The notes under the pieces were generated by a model, which saw only the letters and a program-made list of their open reading frames with translations, was not told the DNA's origin and did not search any database. Made by a program: the position numbers and the translations under genes. Positions 5,790 through 40,434 of a DNA stretch of 41,744 nt are shown piece after piece. Source of the DNA: Candidatus Aenigmatarchaeota archaeon (GTDB taxonomy: Archaea > Aenigmatarchaeota > Aenigmatarchaeia > QMZP01 > QMZT01); NCBI GenBank assembly GCA_016932215.1, contig JAFGDH010000036.1:1-41744 (forward strand). The letters run 5' to 3'. Position 1 is the first letter of the stretch. Each line of letters begins with the position of its first letter.

Positions 5790-8700
5790 TTACTTGGGTT
5801 TTACCATGTTTTCGAACCATTTCTGCCATTCCTTGAAAACATTGTCAGGTTCCGCCGCACCGACCTCTTCCCTGAGCTTTTCTGTCAGAAGATGATGGTG
5901 TATGTTGGAGCGGACCACGTAGTTGGCCTCCATAATGTCCGGGTTCCCGAGCTTGTCCGAAACCTTTACGATGTGTTCTTTCATCTTTGCCCTGAGCATT
6001 ATGTCATTCCATACGGATTCCCAGTTCCCGCTCCACTCCTTCACGTAAGACGATATCCTGTTTATGACCTCCGACTCGCCATTCTTGAAAGTATCGGAAG
6101 GCTTAAGGGTGTCCTCCTTCCCGGAGTATTCCATGAGATTTATGAACCCGCCCTCCTTGGCCGGGTTTTCCTCCCAGTGTTTCCTTATTTCCGTTATCTC
6201 CGTCAGCCTCCTGAACCGGTGGAGCCCGTCGGCCGAACGGAGCGATTTGCACACGGGTATGATGTCGGTGGCCTTGAACGAAGTCGACGGGACGCCGAGA
6301 TCATTGACGACCCTGTCGTAAACGCCATAAGCGCTCTCGCCGTGTATGGTCCCTGAAACGACGTTGGACAATGCACCTATCCTCATCGCCTCGTACAACG
6401 CTTTCGCTTCGGTGCTCCTTACCTCGCCGATGATGAGGGCGGAATCCCCCAGCCTCAGTGCCGTTCTTAATGCTTCGTCAGCCGGCATCTCCGATTCCAC
6501 CCGAGTGATGACGGATCTGGATTTCAAAGAAGCAATATTGTAATGGAGGTCCCTTAGCTGGGCTACCGGGAGCTCGAGGGTATTGTGAGCAAGAATATTT
6601 TCGCAAACGAAATTTTCCGTGTCAGGAACAGATATATCATAAACATATTTCGAGTCGTTCTTGACAACCTTCACTGATTTTACCTGATCCCATAAAATAT
6701 CTGACTTTGCCATGTTGCTCATGTTCTGAAAAAAATCAACATCTTCGTAATCCATGAGACCGCTTATTTTTCCTAATTGGACTCTTCCTATGTTGTTTTC
6801 TCTTGTTATATAATCGTGTCCATTGAAATGCTGGTAACCGAGTGCAATTTTGTTCTTCACCTGTTCTGGGACCGGTATGACGTCACTTGAATCATGCGTT
6901 GAAATTTTTGAACACAGAGCATCGAGCCTGTCTAGTTTTTTGGTTTGAATCAATGATATGTCCTTTTTGAAACATTTCAATGAACTCAATGCACTGATTC
7001 TGCAATGGTAGAACCCATCCCTTTCGTTGCATCTTCCTATTATACCGAATCTGAGAAGCAGGGTCTGTACGTCTTTGATCAGATTTTCCGAGCGCAAGGA
7101 TAACATTATCTCTTTGTAGGAAACACAACCATCCCCGCTGAATAACCCATTTAACAAATGGCCTATCTGTTTATTTGAAAGTCCGTGAACCCATCCTGGT
7201 ATTCTCTTATTGAATGCGTTCCCCTCCAATTCAAATACATTTTTCATAACCTGTTTCAGTGCCTTTGAATTCAACATCAATGAAAAATTATCGGAATGCG
7301 TTCTTGGCTTGATCCCGAACATTTTTCCCACTTTTCTCACAACGTTTCTTGCTTCCTCTTCACATACTGATAAGATAACGGAATTCCTGTCATAACATCC
7401 GTCCGCAATCCAGAGACCGACGAAAGTCAAAAACTCCTCGTTTAACGGGATTCCTGTCTTTAACGGAATGGAAGATGTCCTGTATTTTATTTTCAAATCG
7501 CCCTTTTTCAGGCGGCAACCCTCTTTGATCGCTTTTTCAAGAACATTGACTGGTATCACGGATTTTCTCTTCCATGTTTGTGTCACACCTTTGAGAGGGC
7601 CTTCTATGAAATATCCCATCCCCTTCGCTATTTCTGAAAGCAGTTTTTTGTTTTTATCGACAAATTCACTCACTGAAGGACCCGTGATAAACGCACCTTC
7701 CAATCTATCGATGTGGTCAATAAGATTTATTGATTTTTTACCCTTTGTTATTACTGGAAGTATTCTTGGGGTAACTATATGATCTCCTTTTTTGAGTTTC
7801 CTGCATTCCACGCTTTCAGTGTATCCATTTTCTCCCATGGTGAAAAGCGAGTGATCTCCGGTTACTCTTATTTTCCTTCCGGTTCTGGTTTCAACCTCGT
7901 ATATGTTTTTATTCACTCTGTGTCGAATGAATTTGCTCACTTCAGAAAGTATGGCTTTTCCTTCTTTGTTAATGGAAAATACCTTTATTTCTTCCGGGTT
8001 CTTTGCTATTTCCCTTCCGAGGCTTTTTTCACCGTAATTTTTTATCATCTCATCTACAACGTCACCAATCTTCCCCTTTTCTATTTTGCCGTCTTTTTCG
8101 TATAACAATTCACAATCACCAGTTACACTGTCTTCTATGGTAAGTATCCTCGTCTTCGGGAGGAGTTCCAGCATGAGTGAACCCAGAAGGCTCGTTTTTC
8201 CTGCTCCCCTTCCGCCGGCCACGAGTATGCTGACCGAACCGTCTATCAGGAAAGAAAGCAATCCCGCTGCCAGGGGGTTTAGTGTCTTGCTCTTTATCAG
8301 AAGAGGAAGTGTCCATGGCTTGTCCCTGTGCCTCCTTATGGCGAAACCGAAACCCTCCGGTGAAAGGTTCTTCGTTATCACCGCGAACCTGGCCTTCCCG
8401 CCCGGGACCGCGATGTCAGTGTCGAGAACCGGGTTCGCTTCGTCTAACGGCCTTCCGGACTGTATTCGCAGACGCGTCGCCCATGATTCAGCATCCTCTT
8501 TGGTGGGGATGAGATTGGTTATGCACTCCTCGTAGTCCCCGTGGAATATCAGAATCGGAGATGTTTCGATGGGCGAGTTTATGTATATGTCCTGTATTTT
8601 TTCATCCCCAAGAAGCACCTCTAGCACTCCGAGACCGGCGGTGTACCTTGTGAGTATCTCAGCTAGCTGGTTGAGGTCTTTCGTGGAAAGATAGACACCG

Positions 8701-9599
8701 GATTTGTCCGCGACCTCCCTTATCATGTCCTTTCCGATGTTGTAGAAAACCTCCCTCACCTTTTCCGAACGGACGAATTCCGCCGTCTTGGGCCGATGGG
8801 TAGCCATGTATCTTCTGGCGGTGTCAAGGACAGTGTACTTGTCCTCAGGAAGCTCGAATTCCGGGGGAGTGACGTGATAATAATACGATGACGTCGTCGG
8901 AAGCCGGTATATCTCCACCTGTATGTCATTCACCTTGTACCTGTCGACCGATTTTCCGGTTTCGGGCGGGGTGATCATGTACCTCGTGAGCATGAAGTTC
9001 GGCCGGACGGACGGGGTGAAAAGCTCCCTGTAAAGCGAGCGGTCCCCTACGTGGTATCCGGACAGGTGTTCCTTTACAGCGTTTATCATTTTCGTCCTTT
9101 CCATCTTCAGCTTGAGCGGTTCTATTATTTCCTCCTTGTAGTGCCTGTAGCAGGCGAATCCCCTGTCCTTCCTCTTCATCTTTATCATGAGGTTCCTGGA
9201 TTCCCTGACGAGCTCCACGTACGCTCCTATGGGATCTCTTCTCATCAGATTGATAAGGATATACTGCAGCCTCTGGCTGAAATCCGGGTAGAACCTTTCC
9301 CACTTGTCGGGCCTTATGTTCTTGTATGATATCATCCTCGTCCTTACTATCTCTTCGACGATGTCGGCTATCTCTACCAGCATCTGCACCTGTTCGCCGC
9401 TGTACTCGTATTCCCTCTCCTTGACTAGAACGATCGACAATACCCTCTTCACAGAAAGAATCTTGTCTATCACGTTGGCCATCACGCTCTCGAAGTCCTC
9501 GATGGAGGCGCCGGTTATTGAGCCGAGAAGATTGATAGTGAGCGTTCTGGAATCCTCGTCGTAAAGGTACCCCCCCTTTGTTTCCTCGGTTTCCGCCAT
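5790..9599 (-). CDS. Type II/IV secretion (archaeal pilus/TadA-FlaI-like) ATPase containing an intein
   Basis: 1269 residues from the ATG at 9599; removing the 516-residue intein leaves a 753-residue ATPase. Visible motifs are a Walker A (GGRGAGKT, about residues 462-469), the acidic box ILTIED interrupted right after the Asp by the intein, then TLELPVAQLRDLHYN, a Walker B region (LGDSALIIGEVRSTEA) and a His box (SGTIHGES). These define the PilT/VirB11/GspE family of hexameric ATPases that power pilus or archaellum assembly at the cytoplasmic membrane. The N-terminal part (about 450 residues) is longer than in typical FlaI. A TTG 13 codons upstream would extend the protein but would overlap a palindromic repeat block, so I prefer the ATG. 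No membrane platform gene is adjacent. A 603-residue protein at 34756 with a pilin-type signal could be a client. Confidence 0.9.
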   Translation of the reverse strand: MAETEETKGGYLYDEDSRTLTINLLGSITGASIEDFESVMANVIDKILSVKRVLSIVLVKEREYEYSGEQVQMLVEIADIVEEIVRTRMISYKNIRPDKWERFYPDFSQRLQYILINLMRRDPIGAYVELVRESRNLMIKMKRKDRGFACYRHYKEEIIEPLKLKMERTKMINAVKEHLSGYHVGDRSLYRELFTPSVRPNFMLTRYMITPPETGKSVDRYKVNDIQVEIYRLPTTSSYYYHVTPPEFELPEDKYTVLDTARRYMATHRPKTAEFVRSEKVREVFYNIGKDMIREVADKSGVYLSTKDLNQLAEILTRYTAGLGVLEVLLGDEKIQDIYINSPIETSPILIFHGDYEECITNLIPTKEDAESWATRLRIQSGRPLDEANPVLDTDIAVPGGKARFAVITKNLSPEGFGFAIRRHRDKPWTLPLLIKSKTLNPLAAGLLSFLIDGSVSILVAGGRGAGKTSLLGSLMLELLPKTRILTIEDSVTGDCELLYEKDGKIEKGKIGDVVDEMIKNYGEKSLGREIAKNPEEIKVFSINKEGKAILSEVSKFIRHRVNKNIYEVETRTGRKIRVTGDHSLFTMGENGYTESVECRKLKKGDHIVTPRILPVITKGKKSINLIDHIDRLEGAFITGPSVSEFVDKNKKLLSEIAKGMGYFIEGPLKGVTQTWKRKSVIPVNVLEKAIKEGCRLKKGDLKIKYRTSSIPLKTGIPLNEEFLTFVGLWIADGCYDRNSVILSVCEEEARNVVRKVGKMFGIKPRTHSDNFSLMLNSKALKQVMKNVFELEGNAFNKRIPGWVHGLSNKQIGHLLNGLFSGDGCVSYKEIMLSLRSENLIKDVQTLLLRFGIIGRCNERDGFYHCRISALSSLKCFKKDISLIQTKKLDRLDALCSKISTHDSSDVIPVPEQVKNKIALGYQHFNGHDYITRENNIGRVQLGKISGLMDYEDVDFFQNMSNMAKSDILWDQVKSVKVVKNDSKYVYDISVPDTENFVCENILAHNTLELPVAQLRDLHYNIASLKSRSVITRVESEMPADEALRTALRLGDSALIIGEVRSTEAKALYEAMRIGALSNVVSGTIHGESAYGVYDRVVNDLGVPSTSFKATDIIPVCKSLRSADGLHRFRRLTEITEIRKHWEENPAKEGGFINLMEYSGKEDTLKPSDTFKNGESEVINRISSYVKEWSGNWESVWNDIMLRAKMKEHIVKVSDKLGNPDIMEANYVVRSNIHHHLLTEKLREEVGAAEPDNVFKEWQKWFENMVKPK
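6582..8129 (-). mobile_element. Intein with LAGLIDADG homing endonuclease inside the secretion ATPase
   Basis: The insert spans 516 residues (about 491-1006 of the host protein). It begins with Ser (block A, SVTGDCELLY), has a block B TGDH with its His at about 583, two LAGLIDADG dodecapeptides (FVGLWIADG at about 726-734 and LLNGLFSGDG at about 815-824), a block F (YVYDISVPDTENFV) and ends ILAHN, with Thr as the +1 extein residue. All splicing residues (Ser1, block B His, penultimate His, terminal Asn, Thr+1) are intact, so self-splicing should give a continuous ILTIED-TLELPV. Both endonuclease acidic residues (Asp in each dodecapeptide) are kept, so homing may still work. The insertion point lies in the conserved acidic box of the ATPase active site, a typical hard-to-lose intein site. 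Confidence 0.93.
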
Positions 9600-9619
9600 A
9601 TCCAACACCCATTCCGAAT

Positions 9620-9737
9620 GACGACCTTTACAAGACAATGCAAATCGTCACTTTTAGAATGACGACTTATTCAGAACGATAAAAGTCGTCTTTCCTCAAA
9701 TACGATTGACGACTTAATCCGAACAATACAAGTCGTC
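9620..9737. repeat. Three 30-bp palindromic repeats between the divergent pilus ATPase and hydrogenase protease genes
   Basis: Copies lie at 9620-9649, 9661-9690 and 9708-9737. Each has 8-bp arms (GACGACTT ... AAGTCGTC in copies 2 and 3; GACGACCT ... AAATCGTC in copy 1) around a 14-nt centre that is itself partly conserved (GAACRAT-like). The spacers are only 11 and 17 nt. The block sits just upstream of the ATPase start at 9599 and about 45 bp before the + strand start at 9783. It could be a tandem operator or a set of RNA hairpins. The direct observation is the repeat; a regulatory role is inferred. Confidence 0.85.
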
Positions 9738-9750
9738 CTTCGCTATTAAT

Positions 9751-15465: not shown

Positions 15466-16161
15466 ATGGGAAAAATCAAACTCGTCTTTTTTGACATGGA
15501 AGGCACGATCTTCAGGAAGACCGTTAAAACTACCAGGGGGAATTCCGCTCCAAGCGCTTGGTATCTGCTGACGAAAGAGCTCGGTAAAAAGGCATTCGAA
15601 GAAGCGGAGAAAAACAGGGACAGATGGACATCAGGCGAAATAAAGGGTTATGTCGAGTGGATAGACGTTACGATCGAGCTGTTTAAAAAACACGGGCTGA
15701 AAAGGGACTTCTTCGAGAAGGTCATGAATTCCATAGAATACCATCCCGGTGTCAGGGAAACATTTTCAGAACTTCGGAAGAGAGGTTACCTGACCGCGAT
15801 AATTTCCGGAGGTTTCAAGTCACAGGCAGATCGGGCGCAGAAAGACCTGAAAATTGACCATACTCTTTCCGCATGCGAGATTTTCTGGAACAACGACGGA
15901 ACGATAGATCACTGGAATTCCCTGCCGTCAGATTACGAGGGGAAGGTTAAAATAATGAAGCTTCTGATGGACGAGCATGGCCTGAAATCGGAACATTGCG
16001 CCTTCGTCGGGGACGGGAAGAACGACGTTTTCCTGGCGAAAAAGGTGGGAACGAGCATCGCATTAAATGCCCCGGAAGAACTGCAGAGGGTTTCCACCCA
16101 TTCGATAAACCAGCCGGAAGGAAAGGAAGACTTCAGGGATATCCTGAAATACCTGAAATGA
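15466..16161 (+). CDS. HAD-superfamily phosphatase (phosphoserine phosphatase-like)
   Basis: 231 residues. Motif I is FFDMEGTIF (nucleophile Asp10; the usual second Asp is Glu12), motif II is IISGGFKSQ, and motif III/IV is CAFVGDGKNDVFLAKKVGTSIALNA. The arrangement matches class IB HAD phosphatases such as SerB, which hydrolyse small phosphomonoesters. The DxE form of motif I occurs in some archaeal SerB-like proteins, so the substrate is uncertain. The start has a TATA-like element about 25 nt upstream and no Shine-Dalgarno. Confidence 0.85.
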   Translation: MGKIKLVFFDMEGTIFRKTVKTTRGNSAPSAWYLLTKELGKKAFEEAEKNRDRWTSGEIKGYVEWIDVTIELFKKHGLKRDFFEKVMNSIEYHPGVRETFSELRKRGYLTAIISGGFKSQADRAQKDLKIDHTLSACEIFWNNDGTIDHWNSLPSDYEGKVKIMKLLMDEHGLKSEHCAFVGDGKNDVFLAKKVGTSIALNAPEELQRVSTHSINQPEGKEDFRDILKYLK

Positions 16162-25267: not shown

Positions 25268-28200
25268 ATGGACAAAAGAATCCTTGCTATGGTAATGATC
25301 ATCGGGATATTCTCAGTCCTGTTCATGTCCCTTTCCGTGAGTCAGGAAACCTCTTCAGGTTTAACAGATGAACAAATACAAAAACTTATCTCTTTCGGGA
25401 ACTGGGTAAAAAGTAATAAACAAAGTACTTCCTCTAGTCTTTCAATTGAATATTTTGAATATAATATTGAAGACGATAATGGAATAAATTTCAGGGAAAA
25501 TAATTATAAAAAAATTAAATTGAAAGTTGGAAAATCATCTAATTTAGAACTGGACAATTTGGGTATTGATTTGTATATTAATACAGAAGACGAATCCAGT
25601 TCAATATCTTTTTTTGAGAAACGTTTTGACGGTTATAAAAAAACGGGTGAATGGGAAATGGTAATGGGAATTGAAGGAGTCCCTGACGGAGCAAATAGTG
25701 TTGTTTTCAGTGATGAACAAATTTATGCCGCAAACACAGCACTTATGGAAATTGTGGATATTGTGGGGAGAGAATTGGGGATTGAGTGGTTTGGAGTAAG
25801 TCAGCCCACATACGAAGGTCTCAGCATCACCCAGATACAGACGATCAGGGACTTTGCCCAAACGGTCGTTCAGAATGCCCAGCAGAACAGCGGGGTGACA
25901 GAAGATGATCAAAAAACCGAATATCTGATAGAGCCACTGGCAGGGCAGGACATGTACCTTGTCAGATTCATAGATTTCAAGGACAACAGCCCGGATATCC
26001 TGGAGATATGCGTTTATGTCGACCAGGAACATCATTTGTGCGATAACATAATATTCAGGGATTCCAACCTTGACGGCTTCAAAACATCCGCTGATATGGT
26101 AAGATACTCGACTTTTGTTACGGACATGCAAGGCGACCAGCTGGATGCGGACCAGAAACAGACCGCAGATAATGCATTATTGTCGACTATAAGCCTGATA
26201 GAAAACTCGATTTCCGGCGTAACAGAAACCCCTGATGCCGGAGATCCAGCAAGCACGGAGGAAATGAGGACATCACTCGAGGAATTCGCCGGCCTTGTGC
26301 AGAGAAAATATGACAGCCTTTCCTTCGGCGAAGACAGCGATAATTACGATATGAAATATTCGCTCACAAAAAACATAGACGGTGATGATTATCTTGTTGA
26401 ATATTTTGTAAACTGGGACGGTACTACTTGGCTGAAAATCAAATATTCAGTTAAATTGCTTTTCGAGGTTGGTCTTGACGGATTCAAAGATCCAATTGAA
26501 CAAATAATTGGACTTAATGGGGTTCCTGTTCCTCCTGTTAATGCTGATGAATATACAGATGCCCAGAAAAACATTGCCAACAACGAGCTTCTTGTCGTTG
26601 TCGGTAAATTAAAAACTGTTCTGAAAGCTTCTTCTAAAACGAAATATGTCATAAACGTTGGCATGCTATCAGATAACGTGGCCCTTCAGGTAGAGAATGA
26701 TATATCAGCTGCGATGTCATCAATCGAGGACAAGGGGTTAGATTTCAAAATACTATTGATATTGAGTTCAAGTTATGATGATGAAACGGAGTCAGAAGTC
26801 GAGAACAAACAACGCTTCAAGACAGCCTTTAGCGTACCTTCCGGACAAAACAACTACAACATACTTTCCACCTATTCCAAGGGAACAGACGGGAGGAACA
26901 GCCTGGTCCGTTTCTTCTATCACGAGGAAACGGCAAGCAAGCCCGGTTGCAAGGCGTTCAAGGACATAGTTGACTCTCTCACCAAGGACAGCAGCCAGGA
27001 AATAACATTCGACGAGTTCAAAACAGAGGTTCTGAACCTTATAAGCAAAATGGAGACATTCCTTACTTCTGATGATTACAATGCATGCGAGGCTGAGGAA
27101 GCCGGGGAAGAAGAACCAGAAGAAATAATGGGAGGATTAAAACTTGGAAATGCCACCTACATAGTCGACAGCTCCAAAATCGAGAACGTTATAAAATCCC
27201 TTCCCCTGGCCGTTTACCATTACATACCCGGCGGAACATCCAGCTTGTCTGGTGTTGCACCAGATCTCAGATCGGCATTGGAAAAGAAGATAAGAAGCTC
27301 TTACATAATGTACAACCCGTTCCTCCTTTACCACGACAACGACCCGGAATCCATGCTCCATTTCATCGACATACTGAAAAAGGAGAACTCCAAAGTATCT
27401 AATATTTTTGTAGTGTCGGATGACGATGCAACAGCAAAAGAGATTACCGCTCTGGTTAAGGGGAAAAACATCGAAACAAAGACGATTAAAACCGACATCA
27501 TTCCGGATTTATGGAAAACAATCGGTTATGACACTATCGTTGTTGTGGGGGATGACATAGACAACCGCGGTTCCCTGATGGGGGCGCAGCTCGCTTCATA
27601 TTATCATGCCCCTCTTGTCATGTACAGCGAAACCGGAGTGAAATACGATTTCGATGGGAAGAGGGTGATTATTGTAGGGGGTACTGTTCCTCCCAACCAG
27701 GAAATGGATGGGCTGCTGGACAAGGCCGGTACCAGAATAGATTTGGAAAGCATGGAAAAGGTGAACAAGCATCTTCAGGAACAGATGGAAACCGACTATA
27801 TGATACTCGTCAACCCGAAAGACGTCAACAAGGAATACTGCGAGGATTTCACTTTCCAGTCCGCCGGAACCGTCAGCAATCCTTACTGTCACGATTCTCT
27901 GGTCGCTCCGTTGCTGGCTTCGGTAAACAACGAACTGATGGTGTTCACAGATGTCTCCCCGGTCAGTTCCGGCCTTGACCATCTGGATATAACTGACATG
28001 GTAGTTGACAAAGACAAGAACATTTACATAATAAACGAGGACCGGGCAGAGGGCAAATACAAGCTTTACAAGTACGAGTTCGCCGGAAGCGGCTACAAGA
28101 CGGAAAAGCTTATTTCTTACGTGGACTTCGGGAACTTCATCCAGACACCTGACAGGAAGCACCTTTACGTTTACGGAATCTCGGTGGAATCTCTCGGTGC

Positions 28201-31200
28201 TTATTTGCATGCTTATGAAATCGACAATGACCAGCTGAAAGAAAAGACGGAAGCATTCCTCGGAGACATAATGAACGTCACGGAATTGCATGGTGTTCCT
28301 GTATTAAACGTCAATTCCGAAATCCTTAGCGTCAGAATGGACAATGACGAAAATCTGTACCTTTTGTATAACTCCAGTAAAATTGAAGTCTTGAAATATG
28401 ACAAGAAGGGAAAAACATTCGAAATGAAATACAAAAGCATAATAAATGACATCAGCAGATATATTGGAAGTTCGCATTATTTTAGCGTATTTCTAAGCAC
28501 TTACAAGAACAAGCCGAATCTGGTATTTTTCACAGTGGTTGAAAATTCAGTTTCCAGTCTCTTTAATCTGGAAATATTTTTCGGTGAATATGACGAGGGG
28601 AAGAAAACATTCAAGGACCCTGTAAAACTTGACGGCCGCACTGCGGCTTTCATGGCACAAGAAGTGATAAGACAGATGGATGATAACAAGAAATATGATT
28701 TCTATGCTGAAAAAATAATAGGAGAACGAAAAAATGTGACGGATATTTACCCGGACTACACCACAAAATCCTTCTTCTACGCCGAGCCTTATTACTACCT
28801 CTGGGACGGCGGAGACAGCATATTGGTCACGGACAGGAATATCGGGAGAACGCTCGGAACAATCAACGACAATTACGCGCTCCAGTCACAGGCACACTCG
28901 CTTTACAAAAAATTCAGCGATACCACGAAGAAACTGGAGCAGAACGCGAAGGTCGTCAGGGGCCAGGTAAAAACATTCCTTGGTCATGATGAGTTCAAGG
29001 GAATGCAGTACCTGACAGTAGTCGGAGGCCCGAAGGCAATACCTCTCAGCGTTTATGATTCTTCAGCGAGTGGCGGACTTCAGACATCCTATTTGAAGGT
29101 TAACCTGAACAAGCCCGCGGATTATTATTATTACGCCGACCCGGATGAGGATGGTATATCTCAACTGAAAGTTGGGAGGATTTTCGGGATAACCGAAACG
29201 GACACCTCGTCTTTCGTGAACCTCATAACCCTGTACAAGATCAGGGGAAAGATGATAAACGACATTTCTTTAATGGCCTCTTTAACATACACTGAAACGG
29301 AAAGGGAATTCATCAGTTTTTACGAAAGCATGAAGGGAAAGGCGAATGTACAGTGCTGGACCATGGAAGGTGAAGGTGAATGCAAGGCATTTTCCACCTC
29401 TGCTTTGAAAAGCAACCTGGCGAACAGCGATATAATTTTATATACTGACCATGGTGAAACCGATGCCATTGGTCCTAGCGGGGCTGATCTTTCATGGGCC
29501 GATATACCGAAAATGGATGGCTCGCTGATAGTCGCTCCGGTATGCCTGACGATGGATTATTATTCCTCGTTCAAGAACACGCTGTTCGGGGCAAATGCCA
29601 TCAGAAAGGGTGCAATCGGATACATGGGCGCGGTTAGCGTGAGCCATGCAAACGAGAGCTCTCTCGGGAACGACTTCGTCGGGAGCATAATTTCAGACCT
29701 GTTCGGGGACGCATTCCTCAAATCCGCGAACAGCGTTAAAAACAGGATCTCCGGAATTCCGATGAATTTCATGCTTTTCGGCGACCCGACCTTCACCTAC
29801 TCCGGAACAAAGAAATCTTCTCAGCCGGTCGACCTGACTGAAGCCGAGAAGGGGAAGTGGATAGCTTTCTCCTCGAAAACGCCGGTTGACATTTTCAAGA
29901 CATGTTACGAAGGGGAAACGACCGAAATGGATTTCAACAGTTACACGAGCATGGTTTTTTCGATGAACAAACAGTACGGATTTTCCGGCATCAGCGAAAC
30001 GGGCGGGAAGGTGGTTATCGCTCATAATCAGATAATAATCCTTCCGGACTTGGACGGTAACGGAAAAGTCCAGTGCGGAGAGAAAAACTTCGTGGAATCA
30101 AAGGCATACACGACAAATTATGATGACTGGCTTTCTAAATGCTACAGCAGCGAAGGCAGCCCGGTAAACCTGAACAACTACTTGAAGGCTGTCGTGCTTT
30201 TCATGAACAAAGGCAGCAGCGCATTCTACGGCAAATCCGACTGGAACGATTATTTATTGAAAAAAGTAGGGACTTATTACCCGAAGATTTACGACAAGAA
30301 GACATTGTACCTTCCTGACCTGAATGGTGACGGGATAGTGAAATGCTATAGCGGATCTGTCCCGAAAACAGGAACAGTCACACATCCCGGCGGAACGGGT
30401 GCTATAATCACTAATAAGACAAATTTAACAGCTGATGAAGAGGCGGTCTCTGAACTGGAAAAAATGTATGAAGAGTACAAGAAAGGTTTGGCCAAAGATG
30501 CAGATCCCAAAACTGCTTATTACCCGAAGGCAATTGAAACTGTAAGGAATAGTAATGTTACTGTTACGGGTTATCAGATAAGGCAGTTTGTGATAAAAAT
30601 GTCGGGAAATCAGTCAGTTCATATCGGACCTTTCGTCTCAGCTGTCTTGAATAAGATTACAGAATTTACTGACGGTAGTCCTGGTTCTGTGAATTCCATT
30701 ATTGACGTTACCGGTTGGGACCCAAAAAATCTAATATTGATTGGTCAATCTTTGGAAAGTTATGTGTCCCTTAGTATTGTGGGGGATGTGGGTGAATATT
30801 TGGGTTATGGATTGAACGGAGGGGAAATATATGCTGAAGGGAAGGTCGGGGATAAGATCGCCAGCTCCGCGAAAAGCGGAAGAATATATATAGATATTGG
30901 AAAATCCATGATCAATGAGGACGAAGTAAAGTATGTTTCCGGGAAAATTGACCAGAGCAGTGCTCCTTCGCAGTTCAGTGTTATAATAGAAACATTGAAA
31001 AGAGAAGGAAACTGGATTTTTGCAGATACAGAAGCGTGGGTTCAGGTTTGGCCGGAAAAATCCATGTTAAATCTACTGAAGGATTATTATAATAAGTTTA
31101 AAAATGACCCTGACTGCAAGGATCTGAATAAAAATTGTTATGACAAGCTTATTTCAGTATTTTCCAATAAGCAAATAACCGAAGAAAATATTAAAGAGTT

Positions 31201-31615
31201 TCTAACCAAGTTTGACGAGGCTTATGTTACTGGTATACTTTGGAGATGGTCCAATCTGGATTTTTTGATGGTTTTCATGTCAGCCATGTTTGACAGCTCC
31301 GTTGAACCAAATTTCTTTTTAAACTTCAAGAGTACCAATATCATAAAAATTAACCCCAGAAACAAGTTCGGCGCTTTCATGAGCAAAAGGAAAGACGTTT
31401 ATATTAGTGGCTTAAAGATTGGTGATGATCTTGCCTACCAGGCCAATAACGTGGATATAGATATAGAACCTTATGGGGGCCAGACATGCGAAGAAATCAA
31501 ATCAAAGATAGCCACCGGTGAAGGTTCTCCTTATCAGTTTGTTAATATAACGTGCAGCGGCAAATCGATTTTCTGGATAGAGGAACCTCCCTTTGCGGGG
31601 GACTTAGAATCTTGA
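25268..31615 (+). CDS. Giant secreted protein with gingipain/caspase-like (C25-type) domain, module A
   Basis: 2115 residues with a signal peptide (MIIGIFSVLFMSLSVS). Residues about 30-465 hold three related repeats of about 140 residues, each ending in a D-G-F/Y-K block and an A-N-x-(A/E)-L-L helix. A region near 790-830 resembles a cell-wall-binding repeat (SYYHAPLVMYS ... KRVIIVGGTVP). LVNPKDVNKEYCEDF ... YCHDSLVAPLLA is shared with the paralogue at 34792. The C25-like domain has LTVVGGPKAIPL and a putative His1395-Cys1426 dyad (YTDHGETD and APVCLT). Two dockerin-like EF-hand loops (PDLDGNGKVQC, PDLNGDGIVKC) lie near 1592 and 1682. No C-terminal anchor is seen. I infer a secreted clan CD peptidase or a close relative; substrate unknown. 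Confidence 0.85.
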   Translation: MDKRILAMVMIIGIFSVLFMSLSVSQETSSGLTDEQIQKLISFGNWVKSNKQSTSSSLSIEYFEYNIEDDNGINFRENNYKKIKLKVGKSSNLELDNLGIDLYINTEDESSSISFFEKRFDGYKKTGEWEMVMGIEGVPDGANSVVFSDEQIYAANTALMEIVDIVGRELGIEWFGVSQPTYEGLSITQIQTIRDFAQTVVQNAQQNSGVTEDDQKTEYLIEPLAGQDMYLVRFIDFKDNSPDILEICVYVDQEHHLCDNIIFRDSNLDGFKTSADMVRYSTFVTDMQGDQLDADQKQTADNALLSTISLIENSISGVTETPDAGDPASTEEMRTSLEEFAGLVQRKYDSLSFGEDSDNYDMKYSLTKNIDGDDYLVEYFVNWDGTTWLKIKYSVKLLFEVGLDGFKDPIEQIIGLNGVPVPPVNADEYTDAQKNIANNELLVVVGKLKTVLKASSKTKYVINVGMLSDNVALQVENDISAAMSSIEDKGLDFKILLILSSSYDDETESEVENKQRFKTAFSVPSGQNNYNILSTYSKGTDGRNSLVRFFYHEETASKPGCKAFKDIVDSLTKDSSQEITFDEFKTEVLNLISKMETFLTSDDYNACEAEEAGEEEPEEIMGGLKLGNATYIVDSSKIENVIKSLPLAVYHYIPGGTSSLSGVAPDLRSALEKKIRSSYIMYNPFLLYHDNDPESMLHFIDILKKENSKVSNIFVVSDDDATAKEITALVKGKNIETKTIKTDIIPDLWKTIGYDTIVVVGDDIDNRGSLMGAQLASYYHAPLVMYSETGVKYDFDGKRVIIVGGTVPPNQEMDGLLDKAGTRIDLESMEKVNKHLQEQMETDYMILVNPKDVNKEYCEDFTFQSAGTVSNPYCHDSLVAPLLASVNNELMVFTDVSPVSSGLDHLDITDMVVDKDKNIYIINEDRAEGKYKLYKYEFAGSGYKTEKLISYVDFGNFIQTPDRKHLYVYGISVESLGAYLHAYEIDNDQLKEKTEAFLGDIMNVTELHGVPVLNVNSEILSVRMDNDENLYLLYNSSKIEVLKYDKKGKTFEMKYKSIINDISRYIGSSHYFSVFLSTYKNKPNLVFFTVVENSVSSLFNLEIFFGEYDEGKKTFKDPVKLDGRTAAFMAQEVIRQMDDNKKYDFYAEKIIGERKNVTDIYPDYTTKSFFYAEPYYYLWDGGDSILVTDRNIGRTLGTINDNYALQSQAHSLYKKFSDTTKKLEQNAKVVRGQVKTFLGHDEFKGMQYLTVVGGPKAIPLSVYDSSASGGLQTSYLKVNLNKPADYYYYADPDEDGISQLKVGRIFGITETDTSSFVNLITLYKIRGKMINDISLMASLTYTETEREFISFYESMKGKANVQCWTMEGEGECKAFSTSALKSNLANSDIILYTDHGETDAIGPSGADLSWADIPKMDGSLIVAPVCLTMDYYSSFKNTLFGANAIRKGAIGYMGAVSVSHANESSLGNDFVGSIISDLFGDAFLKSANSVKNRISGIPMNFMLFGDPTFTYSGTKKSSQPVDLTEAEKGKWIAFSSKTPVDIFKTCYEGETTEMDFNSYTSMVFSMNKQYGFSGISETGGKVVIAHNQIIILPDLDGNGKVQCGEKNFVESKAYTTNYDDWLSKCYSSEGSPVNLNNYLKAVVLFMNKGSSAFYGKSDWNDYLLKKVGTYYPKIYDKKTLYLPDLNGDGIVKCYSGSVPKTGTVTHPGGTGAIITNKTNLTADEEAVSELEKMYEEYKKGLAKDADPKTAYYPKAIETVRNSNVTVTGYQIRQFVIKMSGNQSVHIGPFVSAVLNKITEFTDGSPGSVNSIIDVTGWDPKNLILIGQSLESYVSLSIVGDVGEYLGYGLNGGEIYAEGKVGDKIASSAKSGRIYIDIGKSMINEDEVKYVSGKIDQSSAPSQFSVIIETLKREGNWIFADTEAWVQVWPEKSMLNLLKDYYNKFKNDPDCKDLNKNCYDKLISVFSNKQITEENIKEFLTKFDEAYVTGILWRWSNLDFLMVFMSAMFDSSVEPNFFLNFKSTNIIKINPRNKFGAFMSKRKDVYISGLKIGDDLAYQANNVDIDIEPYGGQTCEEIKSKIATGEGSPYQFVNITCSGKSIFWIEEPPFAGDLES

Positions 31616-38795: not shown

Positions 38796-38836
38796 ACTTA
38801 AATTTAATATAAAACACTAAATAAAGTAATTGCAGT

Positions 38837-38869
38837 ATGATGACATTAACCGAGTGAACCAGTCATCAT
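38837..38869 (+). repeat. Perfect 8-bp inverted repeat upstream of tRNA-Ser
   Basis: ATGATGAC (38837-38844) and GTCATCAT (38862-38869) can pair around a 17-nt loop. A TATA-like TTAATATAAAAC at 38804-38815 would start transcription near 38835, so the hairpin could form the 5' leader of the tRNA-Ser precursor. Confidence 0.55.
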
Positions 38870-38919
38870 TCGAAACATATGCCGGGATGGCCGAGCCAGG
38901 TCAAGGCGATGGACTCGAA

Positions 38920-38955
38920 TGGATGTGAAGAGGGTAACCAATGACTTCACGGGAC
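38920..38955 (+). other. Intron 1 of tRNA-Ser (anticodon loop, 37/38)
   Basis: 36 nt at the canonical place. Exon CTCG (32-35) can pair with intron CGGG (38950-38953). The inner stem TGAAG/CTTCA (or GTGAAG/CTTCAC) closes the intron. The 5' bulge is larger than 3 nt, so this is a relaxed motif. It shares ATGACTTCACG with the tRNA-Glu intron 2. Confidence 0.75.
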
Positions 38956-38970
38956 ATCCATTGGGCGTAA

Positions 38971-39011
38971 ACAACGAAAGAAACAGACCGTGTCTGTTTC
39001 GGTTGGCGCGT
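38971..39011 (+). other. Intron 2 of tRNA-Ser (variable-arm loop)
   Basis: 41 nt. Central helix GCGT (38965-38968) with GCGC (39006-39009), bulges AA|A and GT|G, then CAAC/GTTG, then a 9-bp hairpin GAAACAGAC/GTCTGTTTC (38980-38988 and 38992-39000). Removal leaves a GTAA tetraloop on a GGGC/GCCC variable stem. Confidence 0.82.
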
Positions 39012-39028
39012 GCCCGCGCAGGTTCGAA

Positions 39029-39066
39029 AAGCGTATGAAACAGATTTCATCTGTTTCCGTCGAAAT
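39029..39066 (+). other. Intron 3 of tRNA-Ser (T loop, 59/60)
   Basis: 38 nt. Central helix TTCG (54-57) with CGAA (39061-39064), bulges AA|A and AT|T, and an 8-bp hairpin GAAACAGA/TCTGTTTC (39037-39044 and 39050-39057). Removal gives the normal T loop TTCGAAT. Confidence 0.86.
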
Positions 39067-39080
39067 TCCTGCTCCCGGCG

Positions 39081-39092
39081 CTTCTTTTTTTC
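39081..39092 (+). terminator. Oligo-T terminator after tRNA-Ser
   Basis: Eight T residues in a row (39084-39091) directly after the tRNA 3' end, typical of archaeal transcription termination. Confidence 0.6.
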
Positions 39093-39104
39093 AGAATAAG
39101 AAAT

Positions 39105-39746
39105 CTAATAGTTGGTTTCCCCTGTTCCGCAGTTCACTTCGTGGTCACCTTCGTCCGCGCAGAAAATCTCGTTCCCCTCGACATCGAAACTTCTGGTTTT
39201 CTTTGAAAGAATGTCGGATACGCTGCAGCACACCCCTCTGACAGTGTTCCTTACAAGTGACCTGTAATTGTTCATTTTCGTTTCAATATCATCCGTCAGG
39301 TTCATGACTTCCCCAGAACAAGTGTTGAAATCGTTTTTTAGCCTGTCTTCCCTGTCCGTGCAGTCGATAAGATTGTTTTTGGTGTTGACCAGATCCGTTT
39401 CGAGGTTGCCGGATTTTTCCCTTTCATTTGCCAGTTCGGTATTTTTTACCTCTATTTCGCTGGTCAGAGAAGCAACTTTACTCTGTAAATCCTGAAGGCT
39501 TTTTCCCAGGTCGTTTACCCTCGTTTCAAGCCCTCCGGTGTAAATCATGTTTCCGGTCCAGCTGTTTGCCAGAGAAAAACCGACTACCGCTATGACAATA
39601 ACGGCGATGAAGGTGATAGCCCTTCTCCCCCCGAATCCGCCGGATGATTGCTGGTAGCTGTACGACGGTTTTTTCTTGCCCTGTGTAGCGGTCAGAATAA
39701 CCTTAATGAGCTTTCCAAGGTCTCCACCCTTGTCATCCTCACCCAT
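39105..39746 (-). CDS. Membrane-anchored coiled-coil protein with Cys-rich C-terminus
   Basis: 213 residues. Cytoplasmic Gly/Ser/Tyr-rich start (about 45 residues), one membrane span (AITFIAVIVIAVVGFSLA, about 46-63), then a heptad-like coiled coil (about 73-165) and a C-terminal part with VCCSV, IFCADEG and NCGTG cysteines. The topology suggests an extracellular coiled coil and disulfides. No family recognised. Its promoter carries an inverted repeat around the TATA region (39761-39781). Confidence 0.8.
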   Translation of the reverse strand: MGEDDKGGDLGKLIKVILTATQGKKKPSYSYQQSSGGFGGRRAITFIAVIVIAVVGFSLANSWTGNMIYTGGLETRVNDLGKSLQDLQSKVASLTSEIEVKNTELANEREKSGNLETDLVNTKNNLIDCTDREDRLKNDFNTCSGEVMNLTDDIETKMNNYRSLVRNTVRGVCCSVSDILSKKTRSFDVEGNEIFCADEGDHEVNCGTGETNY

Positions 39747-39760
39747 ATTGAATATTTGTG

Positions 39761-39781
39761 AACAAGTGTTAAATACTTGTT
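39761..39781 (-). promoter_or_regulatory. Inverted repeat over the TATA region of the coiled-coil gene
   Basis: AACAAGT (39761-39767) and ACTTGTT (39775-39781) are 7-bp arms around GTTAAAT. Read on the minus strand, TATTTAACA lies about 27-30 nt before the ATG at 39746, so the repeat covers the likely TATA box. It could be an operator. Confidence 0.45.
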
Positions 39782-39853
39782 TTCCGGCCGTGAAACCTTA
39801 AAAATACTTGCCGTAAATTATTAGCATAAACGTTTGAAGCGGACAATGCCTCA

Positions 39854-39926
39854 GGGCTCGTGGTCTAGTGGCTATGACGTCGCCCTCACACGGCGAAGAT
39901 CGAGAGTTCAATTCTCTCCGAGCCCA
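39854..39926 (+). tRNA. tRNA-Val(CAC)
   Basis: 73 nt. Acceptor GGGCTCG/CGAGCCC with discriminator A, anticodon stem TCGCC/GGCGA and loop CTCACAC with anticodon CAC (39887-39889), T arm GAGAG-TTCAATT-CTCTC. No intron. CCA is not encoded. A TATA-like GTAAATTATTA lies about 35 nt upstream. Confidence 0.95.
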
Positions 39927-39968
39927 TGAAACGCATTTAAAAGTGAAATAGAATATAACTAACTATCT

Positions 39969-40042
39969 GGGCCGGTAGTCTAGTTGGTTATGACGTCGCC
40001 TTGACGTGGCGGAGGTCGCCGGTTCGAATCCGGCTCGGCCCA
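39969..40042 (+). tRNA. tRNA-Val(GAC)
   Basis: 74 nt. Acceptor GGGCCGG/TCGGCCC (one G-U pair), anticodon loop TTGACGT with anticodon GAC (40003-40005), T arm GCCGG-TTCGAAT-CCGGC. No intron, CCA not encoded. A TATA-like CATTTAAAAG at 39934-39943 fits. Confidence 0.95.
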
Positions 40043-40105
40043 TCATTTCTCGAAACGGGCGACAGCTTTTACTGGTTTATTCAGGCTGTCATTCAAAATT
40101 TAATA

Positions 40106-40115
40106 TTTATAAAAC
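40106..40115 (+). promoter_or_regulatory. TATA box of tRNA-Glu
   Basis: TTTATAAAAC lies about 26-30 nt before the tRNA 5' end at 40141, the usual archaeal spacing. Confidence 0.6.
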
Positions 40116-40162
40116 AAATATCACCATTAAATCTAATATTGCCCCTGTAGTCTAGCGGCCAA

Positions 40163-40194
40163 TGTTTTCACCGCAATCGCGGTAAAACGGATAA
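40163..40194 (+). other. Intron 1 of tRNA-Glu (D loop)
   Basis: 32 nt with a hairpin GTTTT-C-ACCGC / GCGGT-AAAAC (40164-40174 and 40179-40188, loop AATC). Central helix GGCC with GGAT is imperfect (one G-A mismatch), so this is a relaxed motif and the exact boundary may shift by 2 nt because both ends carry AA. Confidence 0.7.
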
Positions 40195-40210
40195 GGATTC
40201 CGGCCTTTCG

Positions 40211-40259
40211 AGTAACTCTCGAAAGAGAGGAGGCTTAAAGCCTATGACTTCACGAAGAA
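40211..40259 (+). other. Intron 2 of tRNA-Glu (anticodon loop, 37/38)
   Basis: 49 nt at the canonical place. Central helix CTTT (32-35) with GAAG (40254-40257), bulges CG|A and AA|A. Inside are a CTCTC-GAAA-GAGAG hairpin with a GNRA loop and a second AGGCTT/AAGCCT stem. It shares ATGACTTCACG (40244-40254) with tRNA-Ser intron 1. Confidence 0.8.
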
Positions 40260-40280
40260 AGCCGGTGACCCGGGTTCAAA

Positions 40281-40318
40281 AGCGTATGAAGCAGATTTCA
40301 TCTGCTTCTGGCTGAAAT
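40281..40318 (+). other. Intron 3 of tRNA-Glu (T loop, 59/60)
   Basis: 38 nt. Central helix TTCA (54-57) with TGAA (40313-40316), bulges AA|A and AT|T, and an 8-bp hairpin GAAGCAGA/TCTGCTTC. It gives T loop TTCAAAT on removal. Confidence 0.86.
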
Positions 40319-40434
40319 TCCCGGCGGGGGCACTCATTTCTTTTTCATGTGTTAATTTTTAAACACGACGTTCCATATATTAAGTTATAAAAACGATGGA
40401 CAAAAAACGAGACATGCTGCCATCGAATCAAAAT

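What the first reader, a model, noticed from the sequence alone, without database searches (positions are those of the whole stretch)
38881..40332. Two tRNA genes each with three introns, several outside the anticodon loop
tRNA-Ser(CGA) carries inserts at 37/38, in the variable-arm loop and at 59/60 in the T loop. tRNA-Glu(TTC) carries inserts in the D loop, at 37/38 and at 59/60. Removing them restores normal 85-nt and 73-nt tRNAs, including GGGC-GTAA-GCCC in the Ser variable arm and TTCGAAT/TTCAAAT T loops. Multi-intron tRNAs are established mainly in Thermoproteales crenarchaea; the other genes here do not look crenarchaeal. An insert in the variable-arm loop is unusual in my knowledge. The splicing endonuclease must accept non-canonical sites.
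Basis: partly seen in the sequence, partly recalled or inferred. Interest (0 to 1): 0.87.

Follow-up and report, generated by a model that had tools for sequence, protein, structure and literature searches.

The report
tRNA genes riddled with related introns
Two tRNA genes in this tiny archaeon (an Aenigmatarchaeote) are each cut by three removable introns, and the rest of the genome goes further: about 1.5 introns per tRNA gene examined, one tRNA with four, and close relatives of these introns sitting in ribosomal RNA and just upstream of ordinary genes.

Summary
tRNA-Ser(CGA) (38881-39080) and tRNA-Glu(TTC) (40141-40332) each contain three inserts. Removing them gives intact 85- and 74-nt tRNAs that ARAGORN names correctly; the uncut genes are invisible to it. 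Five of the six inserts form a 4-bp/3-nt bulge-helix-bulge; the Glu D-loop insert is relaxed. No intron-less copies were found in the 89%-complete genome. The host's splicing endonuclease best matches the ARMAN-2 epsilon2 enzyme; its closest relatives are Aenigmatarchaeota. RtcB ligase is present.

Beyond the finding, I parsed 28 tRNA genes holding 43 introns (1.54 per gene; published Thermoproteales mean 0.84). Leu(CAG) appears to have four; the published maximum I found is three. Thirteen tRNAs carry a 59/60 T-loop intron; those of Lys and Leu(CAG) are identical. A review states that class II tRNAs have no translocatable introns; Ser(CGA) and Leu(CAG) contradict that.

The T-loop introns belong to a hairpin family also found in rRNA, in tRNA leaders (tail 4-6 nt before the tRNA) and in UTRs, nearly always sense-oriented, and confined to this order. 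UTR copies lack a bulge-helix-bulge. How they spread or act is unknown. New variant of a known kind; splicing is inferred, no RNA data.

The parts
38829..38875 (+). Free-standing copy of the hairpin element in the 5' leader of tRNA-Ser(CGA); its tail (CGAA) ends 6 nt before the tRNA
   Evidence: R1 E=1.7e-8, R2 E=3.7e-5; spacing
38881..38919 (+). tRNA-Ser(CGA) exon 1 (to position 37)
38920..38955 (+). Ser intron 1, position 37/38, 36 nt; H=CTCG/CGGG, bulges AA|T and AC|A
38956..38970 (+). tRNA-Ser exon 2 (38 to variable-arm loop)
38971..39011 (+). Ser intron 2 in the variable-arm loop, 41 nt; H=GCGT/GCGC, bulges AA|A and GT|G
39012..39028 (+). tRNA-Ser exon 3 (to position 59)
39029..39066 (+). 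Ser intron 3, position 59/60, 38 nt; H=TTCG/CGAA, bulges AA|A and AT|T; member of the dispersed hairpin family
39067..39080 (+). tRNA-Ser exon 4
39854..39926 (+). plain tRNA-Val(CAC), no intron (internal comparison)
39969..40042 (+). plain tRNA-Val(GAC), no intron (internal comparison)
40051..40098 (+). Free-standing hairpin element between tRNA-Val(GAC) and tRNA-Glu(TTC)
   Evidence: R2 E=3.1e-8
40141..40162 (+). tRNA-Glu(TTC) exon 1
40163..40193 (+). Glu intron 1 in the D loop, 31 nt; relaxed motif, boundaries uncertain by 1-2 nt
40194..40210 (+). tRNA-Glu exon 2 (to position 37)
40211..40259 (+). Glu intron 2, position 37/38, 49 nt; H=CTTT/GAAG, bulges CG|A and AA|A
40260..40280 (+). tRNA-Glu exon 3 (to position 59)
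40281..40318 (+). Glu intron 3, position 59/60, 38 nt; H=TTCA/TGAA, bulges AA|A and AT|T; same family as Ser intron 3, with a paired change in the stem
40319..40332 (+). tRNA-Glu exon 4
9612..9747 (-). Tandem array of three hairpin elements, sense, in the 5'UTR of ORF 5790-9638 (T2SSE ATPase with intein)

Best explanation
These are functional tRNA-Ser(CGA) and tRNA-Glu(TTC) genes of an Aenigmatarchaeote. In the precursor RNA each insert folds so that exon and intron form a central helix of about 4 bp flanked by 3-nt bulges. A homodimeric epsilon2-type splicing endonuclease cuts both bulges and RtcB joins the exons. The 59/60 T-loop introns are members of a dispersed, roughly 35-48-nt hairpin family (consensus AAAGCGTATGA-stem-loop-stem-TCYTTCGAAA) that occupies many tRNA T loops, rRNA loops, tRNA leaders and mRNA UTRs of this archaeal order; the stem of the Ser variable-arm intron resembles it. 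In the T loop the tail YGAA pairs with exon T54-T55-C56-R57 and so makes its own splice site, which would let one element splice out of many tRNAs. Shown: exon integrity, the motifs, family membership, presence of both enzyme genes. Inferred: that splicing happens and that epsilon2 plus RtcB do it. Not known: how copies spread, and what the UTR and leader copies do.
For: Spliced exons pass ARAGORN for 28 tRNA genes (one, Lys, is recognised but not named because an 8-nt anticodon loop is read). 23/43 introns have 4/4 central pairs versus 1.4 expected. All ten T-loop introns tested show the same motif. The intron tail tracks the host exon: G57 with CGAA in 3 of 4, A57 with TGAA-type in 8 of 8, Fisher p=0.018. 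Epsilon2 gene, RtcB. Lys and Leu(CAG) T-loop introns are identical over 37 nt. A model trained only on mRNA-UTR copies (R2) finds T-loop introns in other genera at E=3e-12 to 2e-8 and rRNA inserts at 6e-8 to 7e-4. Stem covariation 0.706 vs 0.174 shuffled and 0.403 vs 0.151. A relative, G020, has a tRNA-Glu whose sequence reads as having introns in the same three places.
Against: No RNA data of any kind. 20 of 43 introns, mostly D-loop ones, lack a strict motif at the first hand-set boundary. Parsing was by hand; some boundaries (Ser, Glu from the start, others) were chosen with the motif in mind, which the random-boundary control does not allow for. UTR/leader copies show no excess of bulge-helix-bulge (24/85 versus 21.3 for swapped flanks), so one splicing story does not cover the whole family. 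The genome is a draft bin, 89% complete.
Confidence: 0.87

Rival explanations
1. The two genes are decaying pseudogenes broken by insertions; working tRNAs come from elsewhere.
For: Inserts are many, and standard finders do not see the genes. About 10% of the genome is missing.
Against: Exons are intact with good stems; splice motifs are maintained, with tail-exon matching; no intron-less copies; 24 of 28 parsed tRNAs in the genome carry at least one insert, so the organism could hardly translate if all were dead.
Confidence: 0.04
2. The hairpin family is a DNA-level mobile repeat (REP/MITE-like, moved by a Y1-type or other transposase); T-loop copies survive because they happen to be spliceable.
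For: Dispersed, many copies, tandem arrays at 47-48-nt spacing, hairpin with conserved flanks, patchy between genera.
Against: No Y1 transposase found. In tandem intergenic regions 19 copies are sense and 2 antisense, which DNA insertion alone does not predict. The tail sits 4-6 nt before the tRNA in all twelve leaders measured.
Confidence: 0.25
3. The UTR and leader hairpins are a functional RNA signal (processing, stability or translation) kept by selection; some copies became T-loop and rRNA introns secondarily.
For: Near-fixed spacing to tRNA 5' ends (4-6 nt), position just upstream of Shine-Dalgarno-like sites, downstream of A+T-rich TATA-like stretches, sense orientation, conserved loop and tail, stem covariation.
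Against: Only some genes have it, and the recognisable ones are unrelated (L1, RNA polymerase N, PCNA, PurE, ScpB); not detected in several members of the same family (G001-G003).
Confidence: 0.35
4. Assembly or binning artefact.
For: Draft genome of 43 contigs.
Against: Same family and same T-loop placement in independently assembled genomes of other genera; no hits outside the order among 114 genomes, so not an adaptor or common contaminant.
Confidence: 0.02

Closest known systems
Multi-intron tRNAs of Thermoproteales and their 'translocatable' introns (Sugahara 2008, Fujishima 2010, as cited in PMC4033280 and PMC4390854)
   Same: Several bulge-helix-bulge introns per tRNA at non-canonical places; near-identical introns in unrelated tRNAs; tRNA-Glu(UUC) with three introns already known in Pyrobaculum calidifontis (PMC4390854).
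   Different: Different lineage and enzyme type; higher density in the genes parsed (1.54 vs 0.84 per gene, PMC8450103); a four-intron Leu; introns in class II tRNAs, including a variable-arm loop, where PMC4390854 says there was no example of a translocatable intron; related hairpins outside tRNA genes.
ARMAN-2 epsilon2 splicing endonuclease (PDB 4fz2/9w2k)
   Same: Full-length homology, 348 bits; Y236, H251, K282, R275 and loop Y160-K161 aligned and conserved (residue roles from PMC12397907).
   Different: Host is an Aenigmatarchaeote, not a Micrarchaeote; activity on these introns untested.
Short 16S rRNA introns of Thermoproteales (PMC4496867)
   Same: Small hairpin introns in rRNA with a bulge-helix-bulge.
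   Different: Here the rRNA inserts belong to the same sequence family as tRNA T-loop introns and mRNA-UTR hairpins; only some of them form a strict motif.
REP / IS200-605-associated palindromic repeats (from general knowledge)
   Same: Dispersed short hairpins with conserved flanks, in tandem arrays.
   Different: Strong sense bias, occurrence as introns, no Y1 transposase found.

Membership tests
Archaeal bulge-helix-bulge (BHB) tRNA introns | Removing the insert restores a standard tRNA | tested here: met
   28 genes; Leu-CAG
Archaeal bulge-helix-bulge (BHB) tRNA introns | 4-bp helix with 3-nt bulges at both exon-intron joints | tested here: met
   5 of 6 window introns strict, Glu D-loop relaxed; 23/43 genome-wide versus 1.4 by chance
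Archaeal bulge-helix-bulge (BHB) tRNA introns | Excision by splicing endonuclease and ligation by RtcB | not testable with these tools
   Genes present; no RNA or biochemistry
epsilon2-type splicing endonuclease | Single three-unit protein of about 390-396 aa, sole endonuclease gene | tested here: met
   One PF01974 hit in the genome, 396-aa ORF, 348 bits to 4fz2 over residues 10-396
epsilon2-type splicing endonuclease | Catalytic Tyr/His/Lys and specificity-loop lysine | tested here: met
   Read from the alignment
Translocatable tRNA introns (Thermoproteales type) | Near-identical introns in different tRNAs at the same or other positions | tested here: met
   Lys = Leu(CAG) 37/37 nt, Pro(TGG) close; 13 T-loop introns
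Translocatable tRNA introns (Thermoproteales type) | Common descent with the Thermoproteales introns | not tested
   No Thermoproteales introns were compared
IS200/IS605 or REP-type DNA repeat | Y1 transposase in the genome | tested here: not met
   No PF01797 hit; genome 89% complete
Reverse-transcribed mobile intron | Reverse transcriptase in the genome | tested here: not met
   No PF00078 hit; an outside source is not excluded
BHB intron, for the mRNA-UTR and leader copies | Flanks form a BHB more often than chance | tested here: not met
   24/85 versus 21.3 +/- 3.7 with swapped flanks; some rRNA copies do form one

The most novel reading that the evidence does not exclude
A single small RNA hairpin has several lives in this archaeal order: transcript-leader cassette before tRNAs and mRNAs, intron in tRNA loops (including class II and four-intron tRNAs), and intron in rRNA. 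It spreads at the RNA level, for example by reverse splicing or ligation followed by copying into DNA, and brings half of its own splice site with it. That would be a self-propagating, non-coding mobile RNA element driven by the host's tRNA-splicing enzymes.
Probability: 0.25. Interest if true: 0.93.

Novelty: new variant of a known kind. Interest (0 to 1): 0.74.

Why it matters
It extends extreme tRNA disruption from Thermoproteales to an uncultured DPANN lineage with an epsilon2 enzyme, supporting the idea that a broad-specificity endonuclease lets introns multiply. It contradicts a published statement that class II tRNAs escape translocatable introns, which had been used as an argument about tRNA age, and it offers a candidate four-intron tRNA. 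The link between tRNA introns, rRNA introns and mRNA-leader hairpins gives a concrete handle on where tRNA introns come from and how they move. In practice, the finders used here miss most of the parsed tRNAs of this genome, so tRNA counts for such genomes are likely to be too low.

Tried and rejected
RNase P substitute: the leader hairpins suggested a replacement for RNase P, but an RNase P RNA is present. Extra pairing of hairpin flanks: no convincing covariation beyond the stem. BHB introns in UTRs: not above chance. Y1 transposase and reverse transcriptase: neither found. Two tRNA-like loci (L130 and L194) were not parsed because the anticodon loop was ambiguous. Literature: no paper found on introns or such hairpins in Aenigmatarchaeota; only open-licence papers are held, so earlier reports in subscription journals may exist, and whether a variable-arm intron has been reported before is not settled.

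Full report
What was checked. The two genes are as described. I rebuilt the exons by hand, confirmed that each precursor is an exact substring of the sequence, and ran ARAGORN on spliced and unspliced forms: Ser(CGA) 85 nt and Glu(TTC) 74 nt are called only when spliced. ARAGORN and Rfam on the raw window report only the two tRNA-Val genes. A search with both spliced sequences found their own exons plus partial or diverged matches to other places, and no intron-less copy; RF00005 likewise. The genome holding the window is 1.14 Mb in 43 contigs, 89% complete.

Splice sites. With the canonical layout (4-nt H, cut after the second of three bulged nt on each strand), Ser has three strict sites and Glu two; the Glu D-loop site is relaxed. 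Over all 43 introns parsed, 23 have 4/4 H pairs at the hand-set boundaries, against a mean of 1.4 and a maximum of 6 for random boundaries. The Ser and Glu boundaries were set with the motif in view, most others from tRNA anatomy; a few, such as Leu(CAG), were adjusted to the motif afterwards, so those cannot count as independent evidence.

Who it is. The only PF01974 gene encodes 396 aa, matching the ARMAN-2 epsilon2 endonuclease 4fz2 over its whole length; the catalytic and specificity-loop residues named in PMC12397907 align. Its nearest relatives in named genomes are Candidatus Aenigmatarchaeota, 70% identical. RtcB is present.

The genome-wide picture. Of 28 tRNA genes parsed, 24 have introns: 43 in all, 1.54 per gene. 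PMC8450103 gives 0.84 for Thermoproteales and 0.21 for archaea overall. My list is not an unbiased sample: intron-hidden genes are hard to find, and a few loci came in through intron similarity. Ser, Glu and Met have three. Leu(CAG) has four: D loop 13 nt, 30/31 46 nt, 37/38 16 nt, 59/60 37 nt, leaving an 84-nt tRNA with intact stems. PMC4033280 and PMC4390854 give three as the maximum. Thirteen tRNAs have a 59/60 intron; those of Lys and Leu(CAG) are identical and Pro(TGG) nearly so, with the tail changed to fit TTCA instead of TTCG. Ser and Leu T-loop introns recur in relatives (G004, G034, G036, G114), so class II tRNAs are repeatedly affected, contrary to the statement in PMC4390854.

The hairpin family. 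The T-loop introns resemble hairpins lying outside tRNAs. A covariance model R1 from 24 copies gave 129 matches at E<=10 in this genome (palindromy makes some places score on both strands). The stem covaries strongly. Copies lie within 16S and 23S rRNA; the Rfam alignment shows two 16S copies as insertions of about 45-48 nt in hairpin loops, one of them in the loop reading GGGGUAAA-UCCU, which I take from memory to be the 690 loop. Others lie in tRNA leaders, in 5'UTRs just before the ribosome-binding site, and after stop codons. In tandem intergenic regions 19 are sense and 2 antisense; one of those two is in fact followed by a short sense gene (RNA polymerase N) missed by the 100-aa cut. Twelve tRNA leaders have the tail 4-6 nt before the tRNA. 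To test kinship without circularity, R2 was built only from mRNA-UTR copies; it finds T-loop introns in G019, G034 and G036 at E=3e-12 to 2e-8. Across 155 genomes of the phylum, 14 have matches at E<=1e-4, all in this order.

Mechanism. In the T loop, exon T54-T55-C56-R57 pairs with the intron tail YGAA, and the bulges AA|N and AT|T complete the motif. The match between R57 and the tail (p=0.018) is what selection for splicing would give. UTR copies keep the tail but have no pairing partner above chance; they are either kept for another role or are recent arrivals. I found no reverse transcriptase or Y1 transposase. I lean slightly to the leader-signal reading for UTR copies because of the fixed spacing, but the evidence does not settle it.

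Limits. No transcript evidence; hand parsing; a draft genome; ORF calls in the orientation count were mechanical; the literature library is open-licence only.

Noticed in passing
L026, minus strand (G000:C4 near 6700): tRNA-Leu(CAG) reads as a four-intron gene (D loop, 30/31, 37/38, 59/60), one more than the published maximum of three.
   Followed up: yes
L180 (G000:C26:32000-39500), matches at 2655, 3091, 5755, 5912, 6151: 16S and 23S rRNA genes carry several copies of the same hairpin family as short insertions.
   Followed up: partly
Leaders of 12 tRNA genes, e.g. window 38829-38875, L010, L020: The hairpin tail ends 4-6 nt before the mature tRNA in all twelve measured; reason unknown.
   Followed up: partly
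L178 (G000:C28:3105-3246): Three tandem copies of the hairpin with identical stem-loop and tail, 47-nt period, upstream of one gene.
   Followed up: no
L017 (G000:C32, about 15720-15790): A tRNA 3' half (GGCCGGGAGTTCAAATCTCCCCCTCGGGA) without a visible 5' half: long-intron or split tRNA candidate.
   Followed up: no
L008 and L007: tRNA-Gly(GCC) has a 19-nt intron at 29/30 inside the anticodon stem; tRNA-Ser(GGA) has an 11-nt intron at 37/38.
   Followed up: partly
L004: tRNA-Ile reads as anticodon TAT, unusual for archaea as far as I know.
   Followed up: no
window 5790-9638 (-): T2SSE-type ATPase ORF of 1282 aa with an intein and LAGLIDADG domain.
   Followed up: no
window 25268-31615 (+): 2115-aa ORF, not searched against families.
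   Followed up: no
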